64,000 bases of DNA from NCBI GenBank assembly GCA_902790935.1, contig CADATP010000004.1, positions 20,743 to 84,742 of the forward strand, written 5' to 3'. Of this stretch, positions 2,817 to 64,000 are shown piece by piece; positions within the stretch are counted from its first letter, which is position 1; each line of letters starts with the position of its first letter. Below the pieces are notes generated by a model. It saw only the letters and a list, made by a program, of their open reading frames with translations, did not search any database and was not told the origin of the DNA. Position numbers and translations under genes: made by a program. Origin of the DNA: an uncultured Lachnospiraceae bacterium. Its GTDB lineage: Bacteria; Bacillota; Clostridia; Lachnospirales; Lachnospiraceae.

Positions 2817-4257
2817 ATGAAAGAATTTATCAAGGGTGCAAATCCCTACATGCCTCTTTGGGAACATGTTCCCGACGGAGAGCCCAGAGTTTTCGAACAT
2901 AACGGAGAAAAAAGAGTCTATGTTTTCGGATCCCACGACATCGAGAGGGACAAGTACTGCGGAAGAAACTATGTTGCCTGGTCCGCGCCTGTTGACGATA
3001 TGACAAACTGGACCTGCCACGGCGTCTGCTACGAAACACATTACGACAGCATTCTCTACGCTCCCGATGTAGTTAAAAAGGGCGATGGGCGATACATATT
3101 ATATGTATGCCGCCGAAAGATGCGGAAGCCTTATCGTAGTTGCTTCCTCTAAGGATCCCTGGGGACCTTATGAAAACCCTGTGGAGACCAAGCTCGGTTT
3201 CGATCCCGGAGTACTGGTCGATGACGATGGTAAGGTATATGCTTTCTGGGGTGGATGCGCCGCTCCCTGCTATATCGCAGAACTTGAAGACGATATGGCT
3301 ACTATAAAGGAGGAAACCCTTGTTTCAAATCCTATGGGCCACGCCAACTGTCCCTGGGATCCTAAAGATGACGGACATATCGATCTTATAGACGCTTTCT
3401 TCGAGGCTTCAAGCCCGAGAAAAGTCCTCGGTAAATACGTTTATATCTACTCTGCAAGATACGAAAAACCTATCCCTGAGCTCGGCATCTTTGAGGATTG
3501 CAACGGCTTCCTCTCCTACAAGTTCAGCGATTCCCCCTTCGGTCCTTACAGAGACGGTGGAAATATAAGCTTTAACGGCGGAGAAATCTTAAGAGATTCA
3601 GAAGGTGTCGGAACTATGACTTACCGTTGGGGCAACAACCACGGTTCTATCATGGAAGTAAACGGAAAATGGTATGTTTTCTACCACAGACATACCGGTA
3701 CAACCGAGTACAGTCGCCAGGCGATGCTCGATCCCGTAGACGTTGCTCTCGGAACCGACGGAAGACTCTTTATCGGAGATATCAAGTTCCTTGCAGGGGA
3801 ACCCGTTAGCGCAAAGCCTGTAGAGATGACCTCTCAGGGCGCCCATATAAACGGTCTTGACGCCCGTAAGTGGATATCCGCCGGTTACGCCTGCCATATC
3901 TTTGGAAGTAAGAAAAATGCCAACATTCGCCCCGTTTATGATGAAAGAGATGATGTTTCCGCTCCCATCGACCTGATAACAGACGGAACAACCGTAGGCT
4001 TTAGATACCTTCAGTTTGGAAACAACACGCCTAAGACTGTTACCCTTATCCTTGAGGAATCAAAAAAGGTAAAGATCAATCTACGCGTAGATTCCTACAG
4101 AGGAAGGATCGTTTCCGTACTTACATCAGACGGCTTATCAAAAGAGATAACCGGCTCTTTAAATACCGGTATTATCGGAAAGCGCGCCGTATACTTCGAA
4201 TTCATCTCTGAGGATAAAGAAGAAGTATTTACATTTGACCGCTTTACATTCGATTAA
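2817..4257 (+). pseudogene. Glycoside hydrolase family 43 enzyme, interrupted by a frameshift
   Basis: Two overlapping reading frames together encode one GH43 five-bladed propeller plus a C-terminal beta-rich domain. Frame one starts at ATG 2817 (AAAGGA 8 bases upstream; an upstream TTG at 2793 is less likely) and stops at 3152 after 111 residues. Frame two carries the rest to 4257. The break is a 7-bp direct duplication at 3080-3093; removing one copy restores a protein of about 477 residues. Catalytic features sit on both sides: the N-terminal blade before the break, then FDPGVLVDDDG (transition-state Asp) and FFEASSPRK (general acid Glu). There is no signal peptide, so the intact enzyme would act on imported oligosaccharides, probably as a xylosidase or arabinofuranosidase. 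Confidence 0.85.
3080..3093 (+). repeat. 7-bp perfect tandem duplication (GGGCGAT x2) breaking GH43
   Basis: GGGCGAT at 3080-3086 is repeated at 3087-3093, directly after a run of five A. Seven is not a multiple of three, so the duplication shifts the frame. One copy gives the expected GH43 sequence VVKKGDTYYMYAAE across the junction. It is consistent with slipped-strand replication and could revert. Confidence 0.9.
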
Positions 4258-6133
4258 ACAGCTTAATAAATTCTGAAGTCGGGATAGGCTTTGAGTATAG
4301 AAAACCTTGCAGGTAATCACAGCCTATCCCTTTCATGTCATCCTCCATCTTAGTGTTTTCAATACCTTCAGCTGTAATTCCAAATCCCATGCTCTTAAAG
4401 GTACTTACCATATTCGGAAGGATAACGTCCGGCTCCTTGTCGTACCCCCAGACAAGGCTTTTATCCAGCTTAATATTGATAAATGGACATTTCTTAAGTC
4501 TCGAAAGATTAGAGTATCCCGTTCCGTAATCGTCCAGTACAAATTTAAATCCCTTCTCACCAAGTGCCTGAATCTGGCTTGTCATAAAGCTCTCGTCCAC
4601 AACAGATTCCTCTGTGATCTCAAGATGAATAAGTCCGGGATCCACTTTATGCTTTTTTGCAATAGCGGAATATCTTTCCGCAAGGTCTGTCCGTACAAAC
4701 TGAACCGGCGATAGATTCACATTTATCCAATCGAGATTAATGTTTTCCGCCATTAAATATCTCATAAAGGAACAAGTCTTTTCGAAAATCTGCTCTCCCA
4801 TCTCGTTTATACGTCCGCTGCTTTCCGCGAGAGGTATAAACATCCCAGGCGGTATTATACTTCCTTCAAAATCCTTTATACGGGCGAGGGCTTCCGCTCC
4901 GACTATCCTCCCCCTTCTGTTAACAAGCGGTTGCAGATAAAGTTCAACGGTATTGTTGTCTATCGCGCTTTCAAGATATCTTCTGACAAGTGTATCCGTC
5001 TTGTTTTTTTGAACATCCGCCTTGGAAATATAAAAGATTTCTCCGCTCTCGCTGTTTCCCGCCTTTTCAAAGATCCTTGACATTGAACCCAGTATTTCGT
5101 CCGCCGTAAAATCATTTTCGGAAAGGTCGATAGTCACAAATCCCGGAGTAAGATAAAGCTCCGCTTCCTCCGACTTCCAGGGCTTTCTAAATCTTTTGCT
5201 CAGATTCTTGCAGGCATATTCAACATCAGTTTTGGGATCTACAAAAACTACAAATCTGCCTTTTCTGTTGTAAAAAATCTTGTTCTTTGGAAAAAACTGC
5301 TTTAGATACTTTCCAATCAGGCTTAGTCCGACGTCTGTCTGATTTGCCCCGTATACCTCCCTTATAACCTGATATCTGTGTACTACGATGCCGATAACCT
5401 TATAATCCATCTTGCCGGCATTTTCTTCGATATACTCTCTTAAAGCAATGGAATTAAAAACAGTACTTCTAAGCTCAAGAAAATACTCCGGGTTTTCAAA
5501 TCCAAGATACACGATGATTATGTCTATAAGGACAAAGGTATCCATTAAAAGGGTGGTGGGGAGAGCCATTCTTACGATGAGAGAGGCAATAAGTATGATG
5601 TTGTATAAAACCATACAGTAGGACTCCCTCTTAGGCATGTCTTTATGGAAATACCTAAGTAGGATCAAAGATGTAATAGCGTATGAAAATCCCACAACAT
5701 AGATATAGGGATAAAGAATTCCGTAATGGAATCCGGATTCATCTACATAGAAAAGAAGTCTTAGGAAAGGGGAAAGAAGGGATACAACTATCCCAAAATA
5801 AAAGGGGATCCTGAGGATATGCCTGATATAGGGCTTCAGTATGATAGAAGCCCTTGTAACAGATAAAGTAAAGCAATACATGACAAAGGCTCTTGTAAAA
5901 AAGCCGATAAAATAGATCATGTTGAGATTATCAACAAGCCATTTCGGAACAGTCTGATAATTATTGTCGGCCACAGACGCAGCGATATCGAAGATAATAA
6001 CCAATGTCTCTATCGCTATCATCTGTATAAAAAGCAGATTCTTCTTAAGAGGAAGCCTTGGTCTTGAGAAGAAGAACACAAGCAAGATTGTCATTACAAG
6101 CAGGGTCGGAATTTCGAAACTATAGCTCCACAT
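4244..6133 (-). CDS. Membrane EAL-domain protein, probable c-di-GMP phosphodiesterase
   Basis: The first 215 or so residues form about seven membrane segments, a probable sensor module. Next comes a degenerate GGDEF domain (about 240-375) in which the signature is replaced by NRKGRFVVF. The last 245 residues are an EAL domain with most catalytic motifs present: GAEALARI, NVNLSPVQF, LEITEES, LDDYGTGYSNL, IKLDKSL and AEGIEN. It is therefore likely to hydrolyse c-di-GMP at the inner membrane. ATG 6133 is chosen because GGAGG lies five bases upstream; a further in-frame ATG at 6145 contains that Shine-Dalgarno. The 3' end overlaps the convergent GH43 by 14 bases. Confidence 0.88.
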   Translation of the reverse strand: MWSYSFEIPTLLVMTILLVFFFSRPRLPLKKNLLFIQMIAIETLVIIFDIAASVADNNYQTVPKWLVDNLNMIYFIGFFTRAFVMYCFTLSVTRASIILKPYIRHILRIPFYFGIVVSLLSPFLRLLFYVDESGFHYGILYPYIYVVGFSYAITSLILLRYFHKDMPKRESYCMVLYNIILIASLIVRMALPTTLLMDTFVLIDIIIVYLGFENPEYFLELRSTVFNSIALREYIEENAGKMDYKVIGIVVHRYQVIREVYGANQTDVGLSLIGKYLKQFFPKNKIFYNRKGRFVVFVDPKTDVEYACKNLSKRFRKPWKSEEAELYLTPGFVTIDLSENDFTADEILGSMSRIFEKAGNSESGEIFYISKADVQKNKTDTLVRRYLESAIDNNTVELYLQPLVNRRGRIVGAEALARIKDFEGSIIPPGMFIPLAESSGRINEMGEQIFEKTCSFMRYLMAENINLDWINVNLSPVQFVRTDLAERYSAIAKKHKVDPGLIHLEITEESVVDESFMTSQIQALGEKGFKFVLDDYGTGYSNLSRLKKCPFINIKLDKSLVWGYDKEPDVILPNMVSTFKSMGFGITAEGIENTKMEDDMKGIGCDYLQGFLYSKPIPTSEFIKLFNRM

Positions 6134-6157
6134 AGGCGCCTCCATTTAGCAATACGA

Positions 6158-56459: not shown

Positions 56460-58490
56460 TTAATCCTTATAAAGACAAAAGTCATCCATTGTTCCCCAGC
56501 CGCCTTTCTCGCATTTAACGCGCATTCCGACTGTCAGTTCATCTCCCGCTTTTGCAGTTACATCTTCTGCCGTCAGCTTTTGCCAGTTAACCCAGCCTTT
56601 AAGGTACTCTCCGCCAAAGAAGCAGACTTCTTCACCGTTTCTCTTTACGTATATTTCTACATAATGCTCCCCGGCATCTCCGCCCTGGATGCTTGCGAAA
56701 GCGTTGTAATTGCCGTCCTCCGAGACTGTTACGGACTGTTCTACGCTAAATTCTATATCCTCGGTTCCGCTCCAAAAATGAAACGCCTTTTCCCCGGATA
56801 CGGCATCAGCAGCTTTGGTCTGAACATCCGTGGGGTCTGCGCTCATATCTGTCTGCACAATCCAAGGTGATAAGCCGCCTTCAAACCCGGGATTTTCCAG
56901 CAGATTAACGTATGAGATCTTAATGTCACAACTAACCGGTGTGCCGTCAGCCGTCTTTCCCGATACGCTGTATTCTCCTCCCATTTTGGTGTCTATCTTT
57001 GCCAGTTCGTCAGCGTTCCATGTAACGTCAATTTCTTTGTTCAGGCTCCTGTCATTAAATACGGCATATACTCCCTCCGGCATTATGAGTTCTTGTCCCT
57101 GGGGAGATTCAACTAAGCATTCCTTTATCATTTCTATGGCGGGGGTTGCGGCCTTTCCCTCTTTTAAATACTTAGGGTTAAAGACGCTTATTGAATCAAG
57201 AACATTTCCTTCAAAATCAAAAAATGCCTGATTATCCCAGGAGCATCCCCCGTAGTATTTTCCGGCATCATTCGGATCATATACTACGGAATATTTACTT
57301 GCCCATCCGCTTCCGTATTCGTTCCATTTTTCTTCATTGGAGGTCTTATCACTTCCAACGGGAATCCAGGCACCCTCCCAGTAAAAAATCCCAAGGCCGC
57401 CTATTTCAGTCATACATTTCATAACATCCCAAACCGCGTTTGCCTGGCTTTGAGGAGAGCAGATGTATTCACCTTTAATATCGCCTTCGCTTACGCTGTT
57501 TCCGAAGCCGTCTCCGTCATCCCCTGTATAGGGAAAAGCAGTCTCCAATACACATACATCTTTTCCGTATGTTGCTTTTACGATATCCATCGTATTTTTC
57601 ATATTCTTAAGGCTTCCGTGCCAGTAAGGGTAATATGATATTCCAAAGATGTCGTAATCTACCTCGTTTTCGGAAAGTCTCAGGGCTTTCTTTGTAATTC
57701 CGACCGAGTCGTCAACCTCCGTATAATGGATAGCTATCTTGATATCTTTCTCATACTTTGCCGAAATATCTCTAACGGCCTTTGAAGCTGATTTAAGAAG
57801 AGTCATTATGGCCTCTTCGCTCTTTTCTCCCGCAAGTCCGTTATTTATCTCATTTCCGATCTGGACCATTCCGACATCGCTTCCCGCGTCTATGATCATA
57901 GAAAGACTCTCTACGGTATAGTCATATAAAGCTTTTGACTTTTCCTCAATATTCATATCCTTCCAGGCCTTCGGTACCATCTGTTTTGAAGGATCGGCCC
58001 AAAAGTCAGAGTAGTGAAAATCAACGTTAAGCTTCATTCCGTAATCGGCGGCTCTTTTTCCGATTTCCGCACATGTACTCGCGTCATTATTGCCTCCGCC
58101 GTATCCTTTCCCGTTTTCATCGAAGGGATCGTTCCAGACTCTCACTCTTACGTAGTTTATTCCGTTTTCAGCCAAAATCTTAAAGAGATCTTCCTCTTCG
58201 CCTTTAAAGTTTTTATACGTAACTCCACTATTTTCCTCAGAGATAATACTGGAAATATCCATACCCCTTATAAATTCATCGCTAAATCCCGGAAGAGGCG
58301 CTATAAAAACTCCGTCCTCTAAACCATCACCAAGGGTTATGCCTTGAGCCTCTCCTGTTTCGCCCTTTTCGCTACCGGTTTTATCCCCTTGCTGCCCTGA
58401 TGCGCAGCCTGCCGCAGAAACTAAAAGAGCGGCTGAAAGTAAAGCTGCTTCTATAGTTTTTAAAATGCTTTTAACATCAATCTTTTTCAT
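56460..58490 (-). CDS. Secreted GH53 arabinogalactan endo-beta-1,4-galactanase lipoprotein
   Basis: About 676 residues from ATG 58490 (GGAGG upstream). A lipobox ends at Cys 29 (LLVSAAGC), so the enzyme is anchored outside the membrane. The GH53 barrel spans about 75-420: FIRGMDISSIISEENSGVTY, YVRVRVWNDP, VDFHYSDFW, QIGNEINNG (acid/base Glu) and VCVLETAFPYTG (nucleophile Glu). A Big_4 Ig-like domain (EIDVTWNADELAKIDT) and a C-terminal jelly-roll module (NLLENPGFEGGLSPW), CBM61-like, follow. It cleaves pectic galactan side chains. Confidence 0.93.
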   Translation of the reverse strand: MKKIDVKSILKTIEAALLSAALLVSAAGCASGQQGDKTGSEKGETGEAQGITLGDGLEDGVFIAPLPGFSDEFIRGMDISSIISEENSGVTYKNFKGEEEDLFKILAENGINYVRVRVWNDPFDENGKGYGGGNNDASTCAEIGKRAADYGMKLNVDFHYSDFWADPSKQMVPKAWKDMNIEEKSKALYDYTVESLSMIIDAGSDVGMVQIGNEINNGLAGEKSEEAIMTLLKSASKAVRDISAKYEKDIKIAIHYTEVDDSVGITKKALRLSENEVDYDIFGISYYPYWHGSLKNMKNTMDIVKATYGKDVCVLETAFPYTGDDGDGFGNSVSEGDIKGEYICSPQSQANAVWDVMKCMTEIGGLGIFYWEGAWIPVGSDKTSNEEKWNEYGSGWASKYSVVYDPNDAGKYYGGCSWDNQAFFDFEGNVLDSISVFNPKYLKEGKAATPAIEMIKECLVESPQGQELIMPEGVYAVFNDRSLNKEIDVTWNADELAKIDTKMGGEYSVSGKTADGTPVSCDIKISYVNLLENPGFEGGLSPWIVQTDMSADPTDVQTKAADAVSGEKAFHFWSGTEDIEFSVEQSVTVSEDGNYNAFASIQGGDAGEHYVEIYVKRNGEEVCFFGGEYLKGWVNWQKLTAEDVTAKAGDELTVGMRVKCEKGGWGTMDDFCLYKD

Positions 58491-58523
58491 TTTCCTACCT
58501 CCATCTTTGGTAACAATTGAATG

Positions 58524-58552
58524 ATAACATGTTTGCGCAACCGATTCCACAA
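58524..58552 (-). promoter_or_regulatory. Promoter of GH53 with internal TTGCGCAA palindrome
   Basis: Minus strand: TTGTGG (58552-58547), 17 bases, TGTTAT (58529-58524); the -10 is weak, fitting an activated or inducible promoter. The palindrome TTGCGCAA (58533-58540) lies between the boxes and has the CG-centred form of LacI-family operators. Confidence 0.45.
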
Positions 58553-58690
58553 GCAATTTTACTGTATTTGAGCCGCTTATTTATGCGTTTTGCCAAAGAT
58601 TATTTTCCGGTAGCGATAATTATTCTCGTATGGTAAAATTCAGTTGTATTCAAACTTTTCAATTATCGGATTAAACTTGAGAGGAAATAT

Positions 58691-60625
58691 ATGTTTGACT
58701 ATAATCTTGATCCGTCTCAGATTGATTATCTTACAGGTCGTGCAAACAGACGCGGACTGTATGATTTTTATTCAGGTCTTTATCCCGGCACAACAATCCA
58801 CGCTATGTATATCGACATCGACAATTTCAAGCGGGTTAATGATATATACGGACATGATGCGGGGGATCAGCTCCTTGTTCAGATAAGCGATCTTATTTTA
58901 CGCGAAACCGGAAACTTCACATCCCGTATAGGCGGCGACGAATATGTTGTTGTGTTCTATGGCCCTTTCTACAGTCATGAAGCTCTCGAAAAGATTGCGG
59001 AAAAGCTGCTTATTGCTTTAGGAGAGCTGGATTTCAGAAAAGATATCCTCTCCATCATCTCCCTTAGCATCGGTATTGTTTTTGACCAAAACGTCAATCA
59101 GGCGCTTGAGGACATCCTGAAAAAATGCGATACCGCTATGTACCGGGCCAAGACCAGCGGCAAAAACCGTTACAGCGTTTACCAGGCAAACGACATCGAG
59201 CAGCAAAAGATCTACAAGATCGAGGCCGAGATGGAAGACGCTTTAAAGAGCTGTCAGTTTATTCCTTTCTTCCAGCCAAGGATAAATATGGTTACAATGC
59301 AAATAGTAGGTGCAGAAGTATCCGTTAAGTGGATCCACCCTACCGACGGAATACTCTCTCCTAAGATATTTATGCCTATTTTCGAGAAAAACGGCTTTAT
59401 TTCAAAGCTTGATATTTATCTGATAGAAGCAGCCTGCAAGATTAAATCCGGCTGGGCCGATGAGAAATATGCTCATCTTCCCCTGTCCCTTTCCATATCC
59501 CGCCTGCAGCTCTTTGACGAAACCTTCCCTACAAGACTCAGCATTATCTGCGACAAGTATAATATTGCTCACAGCGAGATTGAGATTCAGATGAGTGAGA
59601 AGGTATTTATCCAGGACTATAAAGAGATGAAGCGAATGGTTGATGCCCTTATCAGCAAGGATTTCATGGTTTCCATCAATGACTTCGGATCCGGTTTTTC
59701 AGCTCTTAATATGCTTCAAAACATCCCTGTAGATACTATCCGGATGGACAGCGATTTCGTCAGGGATTCAATATCAAACGACAGAGGACGCCACGTACTT
59801 AGAAATATCATCTCTCTTTGTAAGGATTTAAAGCTTGATATAGTGGCAGGCGGAGTTTGCGATAACGATATGGCCAATTTTATTATGACCTGCGGCTGTT
59901 CCCACGGACAGGGTAAGCTCTACTCCGACCCTATGATAGAGACTGATTTTATCCGCTATGCCGAGGAATACTACACCGACGCCACGGACTCTTTTAAATT
60001 CAGTTTTGATGGTGATCTGTTAAGCGACGACGGTATGAAAGAAGCTGGGCTTATCGGCGAAGGAATTACCTTTAAGGAAGGAATCTTTGAAGGGAAAAAA
60101 GCTGTTTCTTTCCCCGGCGGCCCGGTTCAGAAAAACTGTATCATCATACCTAATGAAGTACTGTTTAACGACAGTTATACAATATCCTTATGGATAAAGC
60201 CCAGAAGGAATATTATGTGGAGCTCTGCTCTATACGTTAAATTCGAGACCGGATTTTGCAGTATTGTTCCCATGTCTCCCGATTCCCACTCCGACTTTAG
60301 GATAAGGGATTCAAGACAGGTGAGCGGCTGGTATGACCTTGTGGCTCTGCAGCTTCAGGAGGATACCTGGTACCACTATACCGTTATATACAACGCCCGC
60401 ACGGAAAAAGCCATCAGCTTTGTGAACGGCGAAGTTGCCTTTATAATGGAAAACGTCCCCACCAACAGATTTGCTAAGCTGATCCTTCTTGGCGGAGACG
60501 TATTTCAGCCCTCTTTCGAGGGAGATATCTGTGAACTTGTAATCTACAATGAAGCCAAGGATTTTGATTTCGTGGCCCAGGACCATGAAAACTATCTGCA
60601 AACCCCCGGCTTCATCGGAAACTAG
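58691..60625 (+). CDS. Cytosolic GGDEF + degenerate EAL + C-terminal LamG-like domain protein
   Basis: A 644-residue protein with no signal peptide or membrane helix. GGDEF (about 10-165): DYLTGRANRRGLYDFY, YIDIDNFKRVNDIYGHDAGD and RIGGDEYVVVF (GGDEY at 81-85) are intact, so c-di-GMP synthesis is likely; no RxxD inhibitory site. The EAL domain (about 175-425) has lost its chemistry: EVSVKW for EAL, NDFGSG for DDFGTG, AGGVC for AEGVE. The last 200 residues are a concanavalin-like LamG fold (AVSFPGGPVQKNCIIIPN, YTISLWIKPRRNI, DTWYHYTVIYN, LGGDVFQPSFEGDICELVIY), which normally binds sugars outside cells. It is divergent from GH53. Confidence 0.88.
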   Translation: MFDYNLDPSQIDYLTGRANRRGLYDFYSGLYPGTTIHAMYIDIDNFKRVNDIYGHDAGDQLLVQISDLILRETGNFTSRIGGDEYVVVFYGPFYSHEALEKIAEKLLIALGELDFRKDILSIISLSIGIVFDQNVNQALEDILKKCDTAMYRAKTSGKNRYSVYQANDIEQQKIYKIEAEMEDALKSCQFIPFFQPRINMVTMQIVGAEVSVKWIHPTDGILSPKIFMPIFEKNGFISKLDIYLIEAACKIKSGWADEKYAHLPLSLSISRLQLFDETFPTRLSIICDKYNIAHSEIEIQMSEKVFIQDYKEMKRMVDALISKDFMVSINDFGSGFSALNMLQNIPVDTIRMDSDFVRDSISNDRGRHVLRNIISLCKDLKLDIVAGGVCDNDMANFIMTCGCSHGQGKLYSDPMIETDFIRYAEEYYTDATDSFKFSFDGDLLSDDGMKEAGLIGEGITFKEGIFEGKKAVSFPGGPVQKNCIIIPNEVLFNDSYTISLWIKPRRNIMWSSALYVKFETGFCSIVPMSPDSHSDFRIRDSRQVSGWYDLVALQLQEDTWYHYTVIYNARTEKAISFVNGEVAFIMENVPTNRFAKLILLGGDVFQPSFEGDICELVIYNEAKDFDFVAQDHENYLQTPGFIGN

Positions 60626-60628
60626 ATT

Positions 60629-63028
60629 TTATCTGTTTTCCTGAACATAGATACTTACTCTGCTCTGGATGATCTTTGCTGTTTCATCCAGAGTTTTTTG
60701 TCCGGCAAAATAGCTTCCGGTTTCCTCTTCGATGATCTTAAAGATCTCTCCCGAACCGCTATCTTCCACCTTTGCTTCAGAAAGAATGCGATTTAAGGTA
60801 TCAATCTCTTCCTGTGTAGCGTAGTGGTACTCATACATAGGTCCGTCGCCATAGCTCATTCCTGAGCCGGTAAGACCGGTCTTTGAAAGTTCCTTATCAA
60901 GAAGCTTCTTGTACTCATTTTTGTTGGTAGGGAATCCCCAGTCACTGTCAGTGAATTCCTTAGTAAGCATAAACTCGATAAATTCCCATGCAGAGTCTTT
61001 GTTCTTAGAACCTGAGCAGATTGAATATACGCCCGTGGCACTTATCTTTGCGGAAGGAGTTCCGTCTATTGTAGGGAATCCGATAAAGTTTGCTTTTCCG
61101 GCAAAGATGTAATCGTTATACTCCTGAACTGACTGAAAATTATAGAAGCTGCAAGGATAGCTCATAATAAGTCCGTTTGCAAGTTTCTCCATAGGAGTGT
61201 AATTGTCAGCCTCTGCTGCTTCCCAGTCGATTTCTTCGGGATAGGTCTTTAAGTATTCAAGGATCTGCTTGAACTCATCCGAGTCAAACTTACACTCTCC
61301 GGTCTGTCTGTTTACAAAGTAATCAATATTATATACAAGGCAAAGCTGGATAAGCTCTTCTCTGCTTACATACTCGGACAAAGCCATATCGGGATGAGCT
61401 AAGTCATACTCTATCATATCGCTCATCTTAAGTCCGGGCTTGTCTCCGAAAAGATCCTTGCTTACAGCAAGTGTGTTTAAAGTGTAGCTGTAGGGAACGG
61501 CAACAAGTGTATCTCCAAATCTGTACGCATTTACAACATCTTCGTTGAAATCCTCAAGCTTTACATCAGTGCTGTTATTAAGATAAGGAGTCAGATCCTC
61601 AATAACATGCTGGCTTACATAATCGTTCACATCAAGGTTTGAAAGGTTGATGATATCGATCTTTCCTGATGATGTGATATCGTTAAGCATGGTAGCTGTA
61701 GCGTCCTTAATATCTGCCCCCTCGTTTTCCCATGAAAAGTATGACTTAAGGGTTACATGTACATCGGGATTAAGCTTATTGAACTGAACTACACTGTTTT
61801 TAACATCATAATCCTCATAAAGAGATGCTATAACGATCTCCTTCTTTTCGGTTACTTCGCTGCGCTTCTTTTCTGTTACCTTAATAAGTTCGGTTTCACC
61901 GGTCTCGTAATTGTGGGCAAAAAGATAGATAGTTCCGTCCTCTGCAACATATATCTTGTTTACAGTTCCCTCAACGACGTCAATATCGAGGAAAGCAAAA
62001 AGCTGCTTGGTTTCCTTGGTAGCCGCGTCATACTCATAAAACTTGTCGTATGAAGCGAAGTAGAATTTATTGTTGCTGTAAGTAATAGCGTTGATCCCAC
62101 CGTCGGTTACATCATTTGAAAGTTCAAAGGGTGTGCCAATGGTTAAATCCTCGTTATTAAATTCGGCTATCTTAGTCTCCCAGTCTTTATCGTTGTATAC
62201 GATAAGGCTCTTCTCGCCCTGGTAAATTATTCCGTTTATCCCCTGAACTTCAGGTGAAGCGGTTGTAACAATATTAAGCTCGGAGTCTAATTTGATCAGG
62301 GAAACCTTTACATTTTCTCCGGACCAGTCCATATAAAGAGCGATAATATTTCCCTTACCGTCGGAATAAAAACCGTTCATGTAAGAGCCATCGGTTATAC
62401 CTAACTCTTCATTGGTATACTCTTTAAACGAGGTTATGTTTCCGTCCTCATCAAGAAAAGCAAAACCGGATCTGTAATTGCTTAAAGACTCGTCGTAGTT
62501 TTCGGGATCGGGCTGTTCTACATACCATCCGTAGTTTACGGAAGCGACAAAACCTCCGTTTTCCATTTTAATGACATTGTTTACGTTCGCAGATGTCTTA
62601 GCTTTTTCCTTATGTTCTTCGGGAACAATTGCTTTAACATCTACGAATTCACTTACATTTCCGCCGATATTCGTTTCGGATACAAGCTCTCCGCTTGTCA
62701 GATCAAAAACATCAAAAAATGTAGCAGACTCCTCGTCTTCTTCCGAGTACGCCGACTTAACAATGCTAACCTTGTCCCCTTCGATCTGTGCAGTTGCATC
62801 GTCATAGTAAGTGTTTTCTTCCTTACTAAAGTTAAGAGGAATATATTCCGAAGTATACACATACTCGGAAAGATTCTCCTCTCCGGTACTATCCGCAGTC
62901 TTGTCCCCTTTTCCGCAACCCGTTACAAAAGTGGCAGCGGTCGCAATTGCAAGCAATAATCCGGCTCCCCTTTTGAGGATCGCATTTTTGCTTTGAAAAT
63001 TCTTTCTCATGTTTTCAATTCTCCTCAT
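60629..63028 (-). CDS. Lipoprotein: N-terminal beta-propeller fused to family 1 solute-binding domain
   Basis: Up to 799 residues. A lipobox ends at Cys 38 (ATAATFVTGC). Residues about 60-390 contain repeated strands typical of a propeller (GFAFLDEDGNITSFKEY; YVAEDGTIYLFAHN). From about 400 to the end is a sugar-type ABC solute-binding domain: EIVIASLYEDYDVKNSVVQF, then NKLNPDVHVTLKSYF, IDIINLSNLDV, VVNAYRFGDTLVAVPYSYT and DSAWEFIEFML. ATG 63028 has GGGAG eight bases upstream; ATG 63010 with GAGGAG is an alternative. It lies 12 bases after a histidine kinase; no permease follows within the window. Confidence 0.85.
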   Translation of the reverse strand: MRRIENMRKNFQSKNAILKRGAGLLLAIATAATFVTGCGKGDKTADSTGEENLSEYVYTSEYIPLNFSKEENTYYDDATAQIEGDKVSIVKSAYSEEDEESATFFDVFDLTSGELVSETNIGGNVSEFVDVKAIVPEEHKEKAKTSANVNNVIKMENGGFVASVNYGWYVEQPDPENYDESLSNYRSGFAFLDEDGNITSFKEYTNEELGITDGSYMNGFYSDGKGNIIALYMDWSGENVKVSLIKLDSELNIVTTASPEVQGINGIIYQGEKSLIVYNDKDWETKIAEFNNEDLTIGTPFELSNDVTDGGINAITYSNNKFYFASYDKFYEYDAATKETKQLFAFLDIDVVEGTVNKIYVAEDGTIYLFAHNYETGETELIKVTEKKRSEVTEKKEIVIASLYEDYDVKNSVVQFNKLNPDVHVTLKSYFSWENEGADIKDATATMLNDITSSGKIDIINLSNLDVNDYVSQHVIEDLTPYLNNSTDVKLEDFNEDVVNAYRFGDTLVAVPYSYTLNTLAVSKDLFGDKPGLKMSDMIEYDLAHPDMALSEYVSREELIQLCLVYNIDYFVNRQTGECKFDSDEFKQILEYLKTYPEEIDWEAAEADNYTPMEKLANGLIMSYPCSFYNFQSVQEYNDYIFAGKANFIGFPTIDGTPSAKISATGVYSICSGSKNKDSAWEFIEFMLTKEFTDSDWGFPTNKNEYKKLLDKELSKTGLTGSGMSYGDGPMYEYHYATQEEIDTLNRILSEAKVEDSGSGEIFKIIEEETGSYFAGQKTLDETAKIIQSRVSIYVQENR

Positions 63029-63040
63029 TTATATTTCTCC

Positions 63041-64000
63041 CTATACTGTAACAACTTTATTAAATTCAAGAGTTACTTTGAAAAGATCTCCGTCTATGGA
63101 AATATCCATATTTCCCTTTTGAAGCTGGGTAAGACTAGAAGCTATTGAAAGCCCCAGTCCGTTACCTTCCGCTCCTTCCCTTGATTTATCGCCTCTGACA
63201 AATCTTGCCATCAGCTCCTCGGGAGAAAGGTCAAGTTCTTTCGCTGAAGTATTCTTGAAGATAATCCTGCATTTGTTCTCGTCCTCTTCCAGGCTCATAT
63301 ATACTCTTGTTCCGCTTTGAGCGTACTTACATATATTTCCCAAAAGATTGTCAAATACTCTCCACATACGCCTGGGATCGGCCATGATCATAGTATCGGA
63401 GTCCACATTCTTTGTAATAAGAGTAAGATCCCTTTCGCGAAGTTTTTCTTCAAACTCACCCGCAGCCTGGTTAAGAAGTACTGCTGCCCTGCAGGGCTCT
63501 AACTTTACATCCAAAGCTCCGGCCTGTGCCTTCGAAACTTCAATAAGGTCCTCTAAAAGCCTCTTTAATCTGCTCGACTGTCTTCCGAGGACTTCCGCAT
63601 ACTCGTTTATCTTTGTATTGTCGCAGCTCTCCCTTGAAATAAGATCTGCGTAGTTAATTATCGAAGTAAGCGGTGTCTTGATGTCATGGGAGACATTGGT
63701 TATAAGTGCAGACTGAGTTTTTTCGCTGGCTTCCCTTTTTTCGTTTGATATAACGATTCCTCCGGAAATCTTATCGAGGTCATCAGCCTGATTTCTAAAG
63801 GAAGAAAGCATATATTTTTGATCGACGGGCTGCCCCATTTCTCCGTTTGAAAGTTCTTTCGTCTTTTTAACTATCTTTCCGTAGGATATGGTAATGCGAA
63901 GGAAAAATCCCAGTGAAGCCACAAATATAAAGACAAACAAAACCCAGCCAAAGGCATCGATATTGGTCCATATTCTGAAGTTTCCTATGCAAAGCGCGCT
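63041..64000 (-). CDS. Sensor histidine kinase (5' end beyond window)
   Basis: At least 320 residues in frame to the edge, so the N-terminus is missing. A membrane helix (WVLFVFIFVASLGFFLRITI) leads into a HAMP-like stretch, then the H box NVSHDIKTPLTSIINYADLI, N box VFDNLLGNICKYAQSGTRVY, G1 region EELMARFVRGDKSREGAEGN and G2 GLGLSIASSL. This is a PhoR/VanS-type kinase. Its response regulator is probably further upstream, outside the window. The solute-binding lipoprotein encoded directly after it may deliver or sense the signal. Confidence 0.92.
   Translation of the reverse strand, partial: SALCIGNFRIWTNIDAFGWVLFVFIFVASLGFFLRITISYGKIVKKTKELSNGEMGQPVDQKYMLSSFRNQADDLDKISGGIVISNEKREASEKTQSALITNVSHDIKTPLTSIINYADLISRESCDNTKINEYAEVLGRQSSRLKRLLEDLIEVSKAQAGALDVKLEPCRAAVLLNQAAGEFEEKLRERDLTLITKNVDSDTMIMADPRRMWRVFDNLLGNICKYAQSGTRVYMSLEEDENKCRIIFKNTSAKELDLSPEELMARFVRGDKSREGAEGNGLGLSIASSLTQLQKGNMDISIDGDLFKVTLEFNKVVTV

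What the first reader, a model, noticed from the sequence alone, without database searches (positions are those of the whole stretch)
58691..60625. Cytosolic diguanylate cyclase with dead EAL and a lectin-like LamG domain
LamG/concanavalin folds usually bind glycans outside cells. Here one is joined to a soluble c-di-GMP synthase with an EAL domain that lost all key acids. Located back-to-back with a galactanase, it may read intracellular oligosaccharide and set c-di-GMP, tying nutrient arrival to lifestyle. I know of no described example of this arrangement.
Basis: partly seen in the sequence, partly recalled or inferred. Interest (0 to 1): 0.74.

Follow-up and report, generated by a model that had tools for sequence, protein, structure and literature searches.

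The report
Sugar-sensor-like c-di-GMP synthase family
In plant-fibre-eating gut bacteria, a soluble enzyme predicted to make the signal molecule c-di-GMP carries a sugar-binding-type domain inside the cell, so it may tell the bacterium that pieces of pectin side chains have arrived; this is inferred from sequence comparisons and not yet tested.

Summary
The feature is real. Window 58691-60625 (+) encodes a soluble 644-aa protein: intact GGDEF, EAL without its catalytic set, C-terminal Laminin_G_3. "Lost all key acids" is too strong: E209, E303 and D331 remain.

It belongs to a family: one scan found 41 loci, titled Lachnospiraceae, other Clostridia or unclassified. All 35 full-length members aligned have the three domains; 29 of 35 keep every checked residue of both active sites. 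The dead EAL is one derived clade, where 17 of 92 otherwise conserved EAL columns changed, against 2 of 49 in GGDEF and 0 of 43 in LamG. A few members lost GGDEF instead.

The LamG model's best solved match is Domain 4 of arabinanase AbnA, which binds arabinan (PMC9110388). Two of four other bacterial LamGs share this nearest hit, so it does not fix the ligand. Glycosidase genes adjoin 16 of 42 family ORFs versus 3 of 52 control GGDEF-EAL genes.

Best reading: a cytosolic oligosaccharide sensor wired to c-di-GMP, cyclase-only in this clade. Ligand, activity and direction of response are untested.

The parts
58691..60625 (+). GGDEF - degenerate EAL - Laminin_G_3 protein, 644 aa, soluble
58718..59170 (+). 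GGDEF domain (residues 10-160); GGDEY, D42, K47, N50, D59 intact; no RxxD I-site at the usual place (reads ETGN)
   Evidence: I-site position recalled from PleD
59228..59932 (+). EAL domain (residues 180-414), catalytic set lost (S268, Q300, N330, R351, G387, C390), E209/E303/D331/Q407 kept
59966..60622 (+). C-terminal LamG / concanavalin-like beta-sandwich (residues 426-644; Pfam core 484-622), nearest solved structure AbnA Domain 4
58532..58569 (.). intergenic block kept in all four dead-EAL species (TTGCGCAACCG[AT]TTCCACAA at 58533-58552), LacI-family-operator-like
   Evidence: operator reading is inference
58629..58639 (+). TATGGTAAAAT, extended -10-like element kept in the four species (one base varies) upstream of the cyclase gene
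   Evidence: function is inference, not among the hits
56460..58556 (-). GH53 endo-galactanase, probable lipoprotein, divergent neighbour; likely true start near 58490 (MKKIDVKS, inference)
60629..63028 (-). SBP_bac_1-type probable lipoprotein, 799 aa, convergent neighbour kept in the clade
63041..64000 (-). histidine kinase (cut by the window end; followed by an OmpR-type regulator in sister locus L054)

Best explanation
A soluble diguanylate cyclase gated by an intracellular glycan. Imported oligosaccharides from pectin side chains (arabinan, galactan or arabinogalactan; galactan-type most likely in this clade because of the GH53 partner) bind the LamG sandwich. The signal passes through the EAL domain, which in this clade no longer cuts c-di-GMP and serves as dimerisation and relay scaffold, to the intact GGDEF domain and changes c-di-GMP synthesis. 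In most of the family the same sensor sits on a GGDEF-EAL pair with both sites intact; in a few members only the phosphodiesterase side remains. Shown by computation: architecture, conservation pattern, fold, neighbourhood. Inferred: ligand, coupling, direction of response, effect on lifestyle.
For: Family of 41 loci; all 35 full-length sequences aligned, window included, have the three Pfam domains. In the dead-EAL clade 17 of 92 otherwise conserved EAL columns changed, versus 2 of 49 in GGDEF and 0 of 43 in LamG (EAL vs the other two, Fisher p = 0.0004): cyclase and LamG were kept, phosphodiesterase residues were not. LamG residues W501, W510, E519, F522, R537, R539, W547, D549, W560, D603 and Q606 are invariant in 39 of 39 aligned sequences. 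Confident sandwich model; the first four Foldseek hits are AbnA structures, 5hon E 1.1e-14, TMq 0.76, next fold 1.4e-9; family profile vs PDB sequences 5hon 3.7e-12, next non-AbnA 0.0034. AbnA Domain 4 holds arabinopentaose in its concave cleft, Kd 7.7-11.1 uM for arabinan. A glycosidase is adjacent to 16 of 42 family ORFs vs 3 of 52 controls; clustered at 80% identity, 13 of 33 vs 3 of 37, p = 0.002. GH53 is in 7 of 7 carriers of the gene in the genus vs 13 of 24 non-carriers, one-sided p = 0.03. PilZ proteins (5) and a flagellin are in the genome, so c-di-GMP targets exist.
Against: No binding or enzyme data. AbnA Domain 4 is also the nearest solved relative of 2 of 4 other bacterial LamGs tested, so nearness is not ligand-specific. 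The Trp aligned with an AbnA 'GW' Trp is W in 29 of 39 sequences but P530 in all four dead-EAL species. No GH51 hit in the window's own genome, which is 83% complete. GH enrichment weakens with stricter clustering: at 70% identity 7 of 23 vs 3 of 32, p = 0.05; at 60%, by majority in each cluster, 3 of 9 vs 3 of 28, p = 0.14. Nine of the 12 GH seeds came from family neighbourhoods, which favours the family. 22 of 42 family ORFs have no seed-detected glycosidase within two genes. The conserved operator-like block resembles one at a LacI gene in a maltose-type operon, not a shown galactan one.
Confidence: 0.52

Rival explanations
1. The LamG domain is a protein-protein or oligomerisation module (as in pentraxins) that assembles or localises the cyclase; glycans are irrelevant.
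For: LamG-type sandwiches also match pentraxins; the domain sits beside the EAL dimerisation domain; 22 of 42 family ORFs have no seed-detected glycosidase within two genes.
Against: Best match by sequence and fold is a carbohydrate-binding module, not pentraxin; glycosidase neighbours are enriched; the invariant residues are mainly polar, charged and aromatic.
Confidence: 0.25
2. The LamG binds an endogenous polymer or metabolite (glycogen, nascent exopolysaccharide, cell-wall precursor) and reports internal carbon state rather than imported pectin fragments.
For: Cytosolic location; the operator-like block between GH53 and this gene has its only other match within three mismatches in the genome upstream of a LacI gene whose operon, in two sister genomes, holds maltose-type permeases and an alpha-amylase.
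Against: Neighbouring enzymes found are GH53, GH43, GH51, GH127, GH3 and GH36; no alpha-amylase or other starch enzyme among the 30 neighbour proteins scanned.
Confidence: 0.13
3. A decaying bifunctional enzyme: the EAL has failed and the rest is on the way out.
For: EAL has the highest dN of the three domains between window and L054 (0.104 vs 0.054 GGDEF and 0.074 LamG); one sister copy has an internal TGA; a LamG copy in another genome is broken by stops.
Against: Against L055 EAL and GGDEF dN are equal (0.203, 0.206) and an EAL-intact pair, L064-L065, also has EAL faster than GGDEF. Conserved-column losses are almost confined to EAL; LamG is untouched; the gene is kept with its neighbours in four species.
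Confidence: 0.06

Closest known systems
E. coli DgcE (GGDEF with degenerate EAL; PMC6510439, abstract and passages seen)
   Same: Active-type GGDEF beside an EAL that lost its catalytic residues; there the dead EAL is an inhibitory, dimerising regulator.
   Different: DgcE has MASE1 and PAS sensors at the N-terminus and sits in the membrane; this protein is soluble, its only extra domain is a C-terminal LamG, and its EAL keeps three of the acidic positions.
Domain 4 of Geobacillus stearothermophilus arabinanase AbnA (PDB 5hon, 5hp6; PMC9110388, sections 6, 7, 13 read)
   Same: Same beta-sandwich (TMq 0.76-0.79), 23-24% identity in the Foldseek alignments, shared WYD motif.
   Different: Domain 4 is a module of a secreted hydrolase; here the domain is fused to a cytosolic signalling enzyme, with Arg/Glu/Lys residues invariant or nearly so in a stretch where AbnA has several Trp.
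FimX / LapD (c-di-GMP receptors with GGDEF and EAL both degenerate; recalled)
   Same: Catalytically dead EAL used for regulation.
   Different: GGDEF here is intact, and much of the EAL site is lost.
Bifunctional GGDEF-EAL proteins such as MorA (PDB 4rnh, best PDB match)
   Same: Same GGDEF-EAL order; GGDEF and EAL both intact is the commonest state of this family.
   Different: The MorA chain matched has the EAL residues intact and the match ends before the LamG.

Membership tests
GGDEF diguanylate cyclase | GG(D/E)EF signature with metal and nucleotide residues | tested here: met
   GGDEY, D42, K47, N50, D59, D83, E84
GGDEF diguanylate cyclase | makes c-di-GMP | not testable with these tools
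   needs assay
EAL phosphodiesterase | metal ligands and catalytic Glu/Lys present | tested here: not met
   N268S, E300Q, D330N, K351R, E387G, E390C
Laminin_G_3 / concanavalin-A-like superfamily | Pfam score over cut-off and beta-sandwich fold | tested here: met
   54.9 vs 27.6 bits; model pLDDT 94.2; Foldseek
AbnA Domain 4-type arabinan-binding module | nearest relative by sequence and fold | tested here: met
AbnA Domain 4-type arabinan-binding module | aromatic concave cleft | tested here: inconclusive
   WYD kept, W at 530 absent in this clade; no coordinates available to map the cleft
AbnA Domain 4-type arabinan-binding module | binds arabino-oligosaccharide | not testable with these tools
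   needs ITC or glycan array
DgcE-like cyclase with regulatory dead EAL | intact GGDEF plus degenerate EAL | tested here: met
DgcE-like cyclase with regulatory dead EAL | N-terminal MASE1-PAS input | tested here: not met
   GGDEF starts at residue 10
FimX/LapD-type receptor | GGDEF degenerate as well | tested here: not met
   GGDEF intact

The most novel reading that the evidence does not exclude
A carbohydrate-binding module moved from secreted hydrolases into the cytosol to become the input domain of c-di-GMP enzymes in gut Lachnospiraceae, and the same sensor has been rewired to opposite outputs by inactivating either the EAL (window clade) or the GGDEF (L085; L080, L082 and one L084 copy lack GGDEF) while the sensor stays unchanged.
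Probability: 0.42. Interest if true: 0.78.

Novelty: new variant of a known kind. Interest (0 to 1): 0.62.

Why it matters
Fibre-degrading gut bacteria can carry many c-di-GMP enzymes (16 EAL genes in this 83%-complete genome), whose signals are mostly unknown (general knowledge). In the rumen bacterium Fibrobacter succinogenes c-di-GMP was about 2.5 times higher on cellulose than on glucose, and the authors state that the conditions its GGDEF regulators respond to are not known (PMC6851124, section 8 read). This family offers a concrete, testable molecule: a soluble glycan-sensor candidate whose purified LamG can be screened for ligands, with natural variants in which only the cyclase or only the phosphodiesterase side is intact.

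Tried and rejected
Viral contigs: no relative. Phylum sample at E 1e-12: only the own genome and one 1446-aa LamG frame in 398 genomes. AbnA nearness as proof of ligand: rejected as decisive, because a secreted-type LamG protein of the same genome and L175 also hit AbnA best; L171 and L173 prefer 4qvs. One LacI regulator controlling a galactan regulon: the operator-like match led to a LacI gene, but its operon in sister genomes holds MalF/MalG-like permeases and an alpha-amylase; its binding protein scores GanS (galacto-oligosaccharide) best and MalE next, both far below the cut-offs, so nothing was claimed. In six sister genomes the 20-mer has 10 matches within three mismatches: 3 exact ones at this locus (G008, G013, G014), 2 upstream of the LacI gene (G012, G013) and 5 elsewhere; the reversed-pattern control has 1. 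dN/dS by domain: dS is saturated in most pairs, only dN is usable. GH51 co-occurrence: no association, 5 of 7 vs 21 of 24. One search printed 4 of 53 controls because one gene was counted twice (window 4244-6145 = L125); 3 of 52 is the corrected figure. The 52 come from 49 of 54 fetched control regions; L126-L130 had no ORF that passed the filter. Looked at afterwards, the EAL genes in L126-L129 have no seed-detected glycosidase within two genes. A Pfam scan of neighbours in L126-L129 failed and was not repeated. The PDB_via library was unavailable.

Literature (open library only): 0 papers with GGDEF+EAL+LamG, with diguanylate cyclase+laminin G+carbohydrate, with c-di-GMP+Lachnospiraceae+GGDEF+polysaccharide, or with four sugar-sensing terms. 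Nine papers hold GGDEF+EAL+carbohydrate-binding module; passages of two were seen and one section of one, and these do not describe this fusion; the other seven were seen only in the listing. Four papers hold Butyrivibrio+Roseburia+diguanylate cyclase (listing only). In one search none of the 8 listed papers held 'Laminin_G_3'. Searches were used as listings, plus the abstract of PMC8341724.

Full report
OBSERVATION. Window 58691-60625 (+) is an open frame of 644 aa starting at ATG, with AGAGGA (58680-58685) five bases before it. Pfam finds GGDEF (10-160), EAL (180-414) and Laminin_G_3 (484-622), all above the curated cut-offs. No membrane helix or signal peptide is likely: GGDEF starts at residue 10 and the highest 19-residue hydropathy mean is 1.34. 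The GGDEF site is intact (D42, K47, N50, D59, GGDEY); the usual inhibitory RxxD is absent (I-site position recalled). In the EAL, alignment with MorA and relatives shows N268, E300, D330, K351, E387 and E390 replaced by S, Q, N, R, G, C. E209, E303, D331 and Q407 remain, so 'lost all key acids' is too strong, but catalysis is not expected.

A FAMILY. A scan of genome contigs with the LamG alignment A2 gave 41 relatives among 174 pattern matches, titled mostly as Lachnospiraceae and otherwise as Clostridia, Eubacteriaceae or unclassified bacteria, including Butyribacter intestini, Roseburia and Butyrivibrio records. The scan rests on two short peptide patterns, so 41 is a lower bound (G347 holds a further member). 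Of these 41, 34 are full length; L092-L094 are cut by contig ends, L056 has an internal TGA, and L080, L082 and the hit copy in L084 are EAL-LamG without GGDEF. With the window protein this gives 35 full-length sequences; all 35 carry the three domains. In the genus 7 of 31 genomes hold the gene. In an order-wide sample 17 of 392 genomes matched A2 at E 0.001, but only three had strong hits (G000, G347, G406), of which the G347 protein and one of G406 were confirmed as GGDEF-EAL-LamG. In a phylum sample 2 of 398 matched at 1e-12, one of them the own genome.

OUTPUT STATE VARIES, SENSOR DOES NOT. Of the 35, 29 keep every checked residue of both active sites (nine in GGDEF, ten in EAL). Exceptions: window, L054, L055 (EAL lost), L067 (K351S), L091 (D331N, K351D), and L085 (GGDEF lost: EGNEF). 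L087 has D353A, a position outside the checklist. L056 shares the EAL losses in the part after its stop only in part (E300 and E303 kept, D330S, E387D, E390S). The EAL of the GGDEF-less copies in L080 and L084 is intact where aligned; that of L082 looks intact by eye. The EAL-dead members form one clade (100/100) on a long stem of 1.03 changes per site (35-sequence tree, L056 not included; the forks that place the clade in the family are less well supported). Columns conserved in at least 93% of the 32 other full-length members: GGDEF 49, EAL 92, LamG 43. Changed in all three dead-EAL proteins: 2, 17, 0; changed in some: 1, 11, 0. EAL against the other two domains gives Fisher p = 0.0004; columns are not independent, so this is a guide only. 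dN between window and L054 is 0.054 (GGDEF), 0.104 (EAL), 0.074 (LamG), but between window and L055 it is 0.206, 0.203, 0.131, and an EAL-intact pair (L064-L065) also has faster EAL than GGDEF; dS is saturated in most pairs. The dN data alone therefore do not show relaxation.

THE LAMG DOMAIN. AlphaFold2 on 40 aligned LamG sequences gives a confident sandwich (pLDDT 94.2, pTM 0.91); the full-length model is confident per domain but less so in domain arrangement (pLDDT 88.1, pTM 0.63). The first four Foldseek hits are structures of AbnA (5hon E 1.1e-14; next fold 1.4e-9). Independently, the sequence profile's best PDB match is AbnA Domain 4 (3.7e-12) and the next non-AbnA entry is 0.0034. The window domain alone gives 2.5e-5. 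The paper on AbnA reports arabinopentaose in the concave cleft of Domain 4 and Kd 7.7-11.1 uM for arabinan (PMC9110388, sections 6, 7, 13). Control: the other LamG protein of this genome hits AbnA alone (2.8e-7) and L175 hits it first (1.5e-17), while L171 and L173 prefer 4qvs. The match therefore supports a carbohydrate-binding-module ancestry but not a particular sugar. Residues invariant in 39 of 39 include W501, W510, E519, F522, P527, R537, R539, W547, D549, W560, D603, Q606. Position 530 is W in 29 of 39 but P in the four dead-EAL species, which could mean a changed ligand in this clade.

NEIGHBOURHOOD. In the four dead-EAL species the gene keeps GH53 on one side and an SBP-like protein and histidine kinase on the other, with a response regulator next in the three whose flank reaches it. 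Elsewhere the neighbours include GH43 (L059, L064, L065, L068, L074, L078, L083; second neighbour in L091, L092), GH51 (L062, L084, L085; second neighbour in L059, L087), GH127 (L088), GH3 (L061, L063) and GH36 (second neighbour, L072); Pfam was run on representatives and the rest assigned by BLAST cluster. Several loci also hold oligosaccharide ABC transporter genes. Systematic count with phmmer and 12 glycosidase seeds: adjacent to 16 of 42 family ORFs against 3 of 52 control GGDEF-EAL genes, 11 from the own genome and 41 from the genus (p = 0.0001). The 42 include near-identical species, both copies in L070, L071 and L084, and one half of the broken L056. After clustering at 80% identity 13 of 33 against 3 of 37 (p = 0.002); at 70%, 7 of 23 against 3 of 32 (p = 0.05); at 60% by majority 3 of 9 against 3 of 28 (p = 0.14). 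Nine of the 12 seeds came from family neighbourhoods, which biases the test upward; controls come from one genus only and were picked by me from the list plus the own genome. GH53 occurs in 7 of 7 carriers and 13 of 24 non-carriers in the genus (one-sided p = 0.03); GH51 shows no association and was not found in the window's genome.

REGULATION. The roughly 200 bp between GH53 (start taken near 58490) and this gene hold a block conserved in all four species (58532-58569) and an extended -10-like element (58629-58639). The core 20-mer has one other match within three mismatches in the genome. That match lies just upstream of the likely start of a LacI-family gene; orthologues in G012 and G013 have the same arrangement, and five further matches in sister genomes lie elsewhere. 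The operon encodes an SBP whose best sub-cut-off model is GanS, then MalE, with MalF/MalG-like permeases and an alpha-amylase in the sister genomes. I take the block as LacI-family-operator-like, regulator unknown.

MECHANISM. Shown: domains, active-site states, conservation, fold, gene context. Inferred: an imported oligosaccharide binds LamG; the EAL relays; GGDEF output changes. Precedent for a regulatory dead EAL: DgcE, where it dimerises and inhibits (PMC6510439, abstract and passages). c-di-GMP targets are plausible: five PilZ proteins and a flagellin gene in the genome.

NOVELTY. I found no paper on a GGDEF/EAL-LamG protein in the open library; subscription papers are not covered. Sensor-linked GGDEF-EAL proteins are a known kind; a cytosolic carbohydrate-binding-module-like input domain with swapped output polarity is a new variant.

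Noticed in passing
L066:10724-13171 and L069:5608-8022: Tandem partner of the family gene: GGDEF-EAL followed by about 380 residues without a Pfam match (L066 copy scanned) that look beta-helical by eye; possibly another cytosolic glycan-binding-type domain on a c-di-GMP protein.
   Followed up: partly
window 4244-6145 (-) and 3085-4257 (+): A second EAL protein in the window (N-terminal 390 residues without Pfam match) lies against a GH43 gene.
   Followed up: partly
L080:2204-3679, L082:1924-3534, L084:9209-10732: EAL-LamG proteins without GGDEF; EAL intact where aligned in L080 and L084, by eye in L082: phosphodiesterase-only versions.
   Followed up: partly
window 58533-58552; L184:1501-1520: LacI-operator-like 20-mer between GH53 and the cyclase gene, and its only other near-match in the genome upstream of a LacI gene of maltose-type context.
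   Followed up: partly
L056 (G008) and L180 (G406 C22): Family copies with an in-frame stop (L056, in the EAL) or broken by stops (L180); assembly error or pseudogene not distinguished.
   Followed up: no
L067:2462-4447, and the same cluster in L070 and L071: A 661-710 aa protein, without any Pfam match in the one scanned (L067), sits divergently next to the family gene in three genomes.
   Followed up: no
L053:2120-4954: 945-aa probable lipoprotein with a LamG whose only PDB match is AbnA Domain 4, in a locus that by eye holds transporter- and GH43-like genes.
   Followed up: partly
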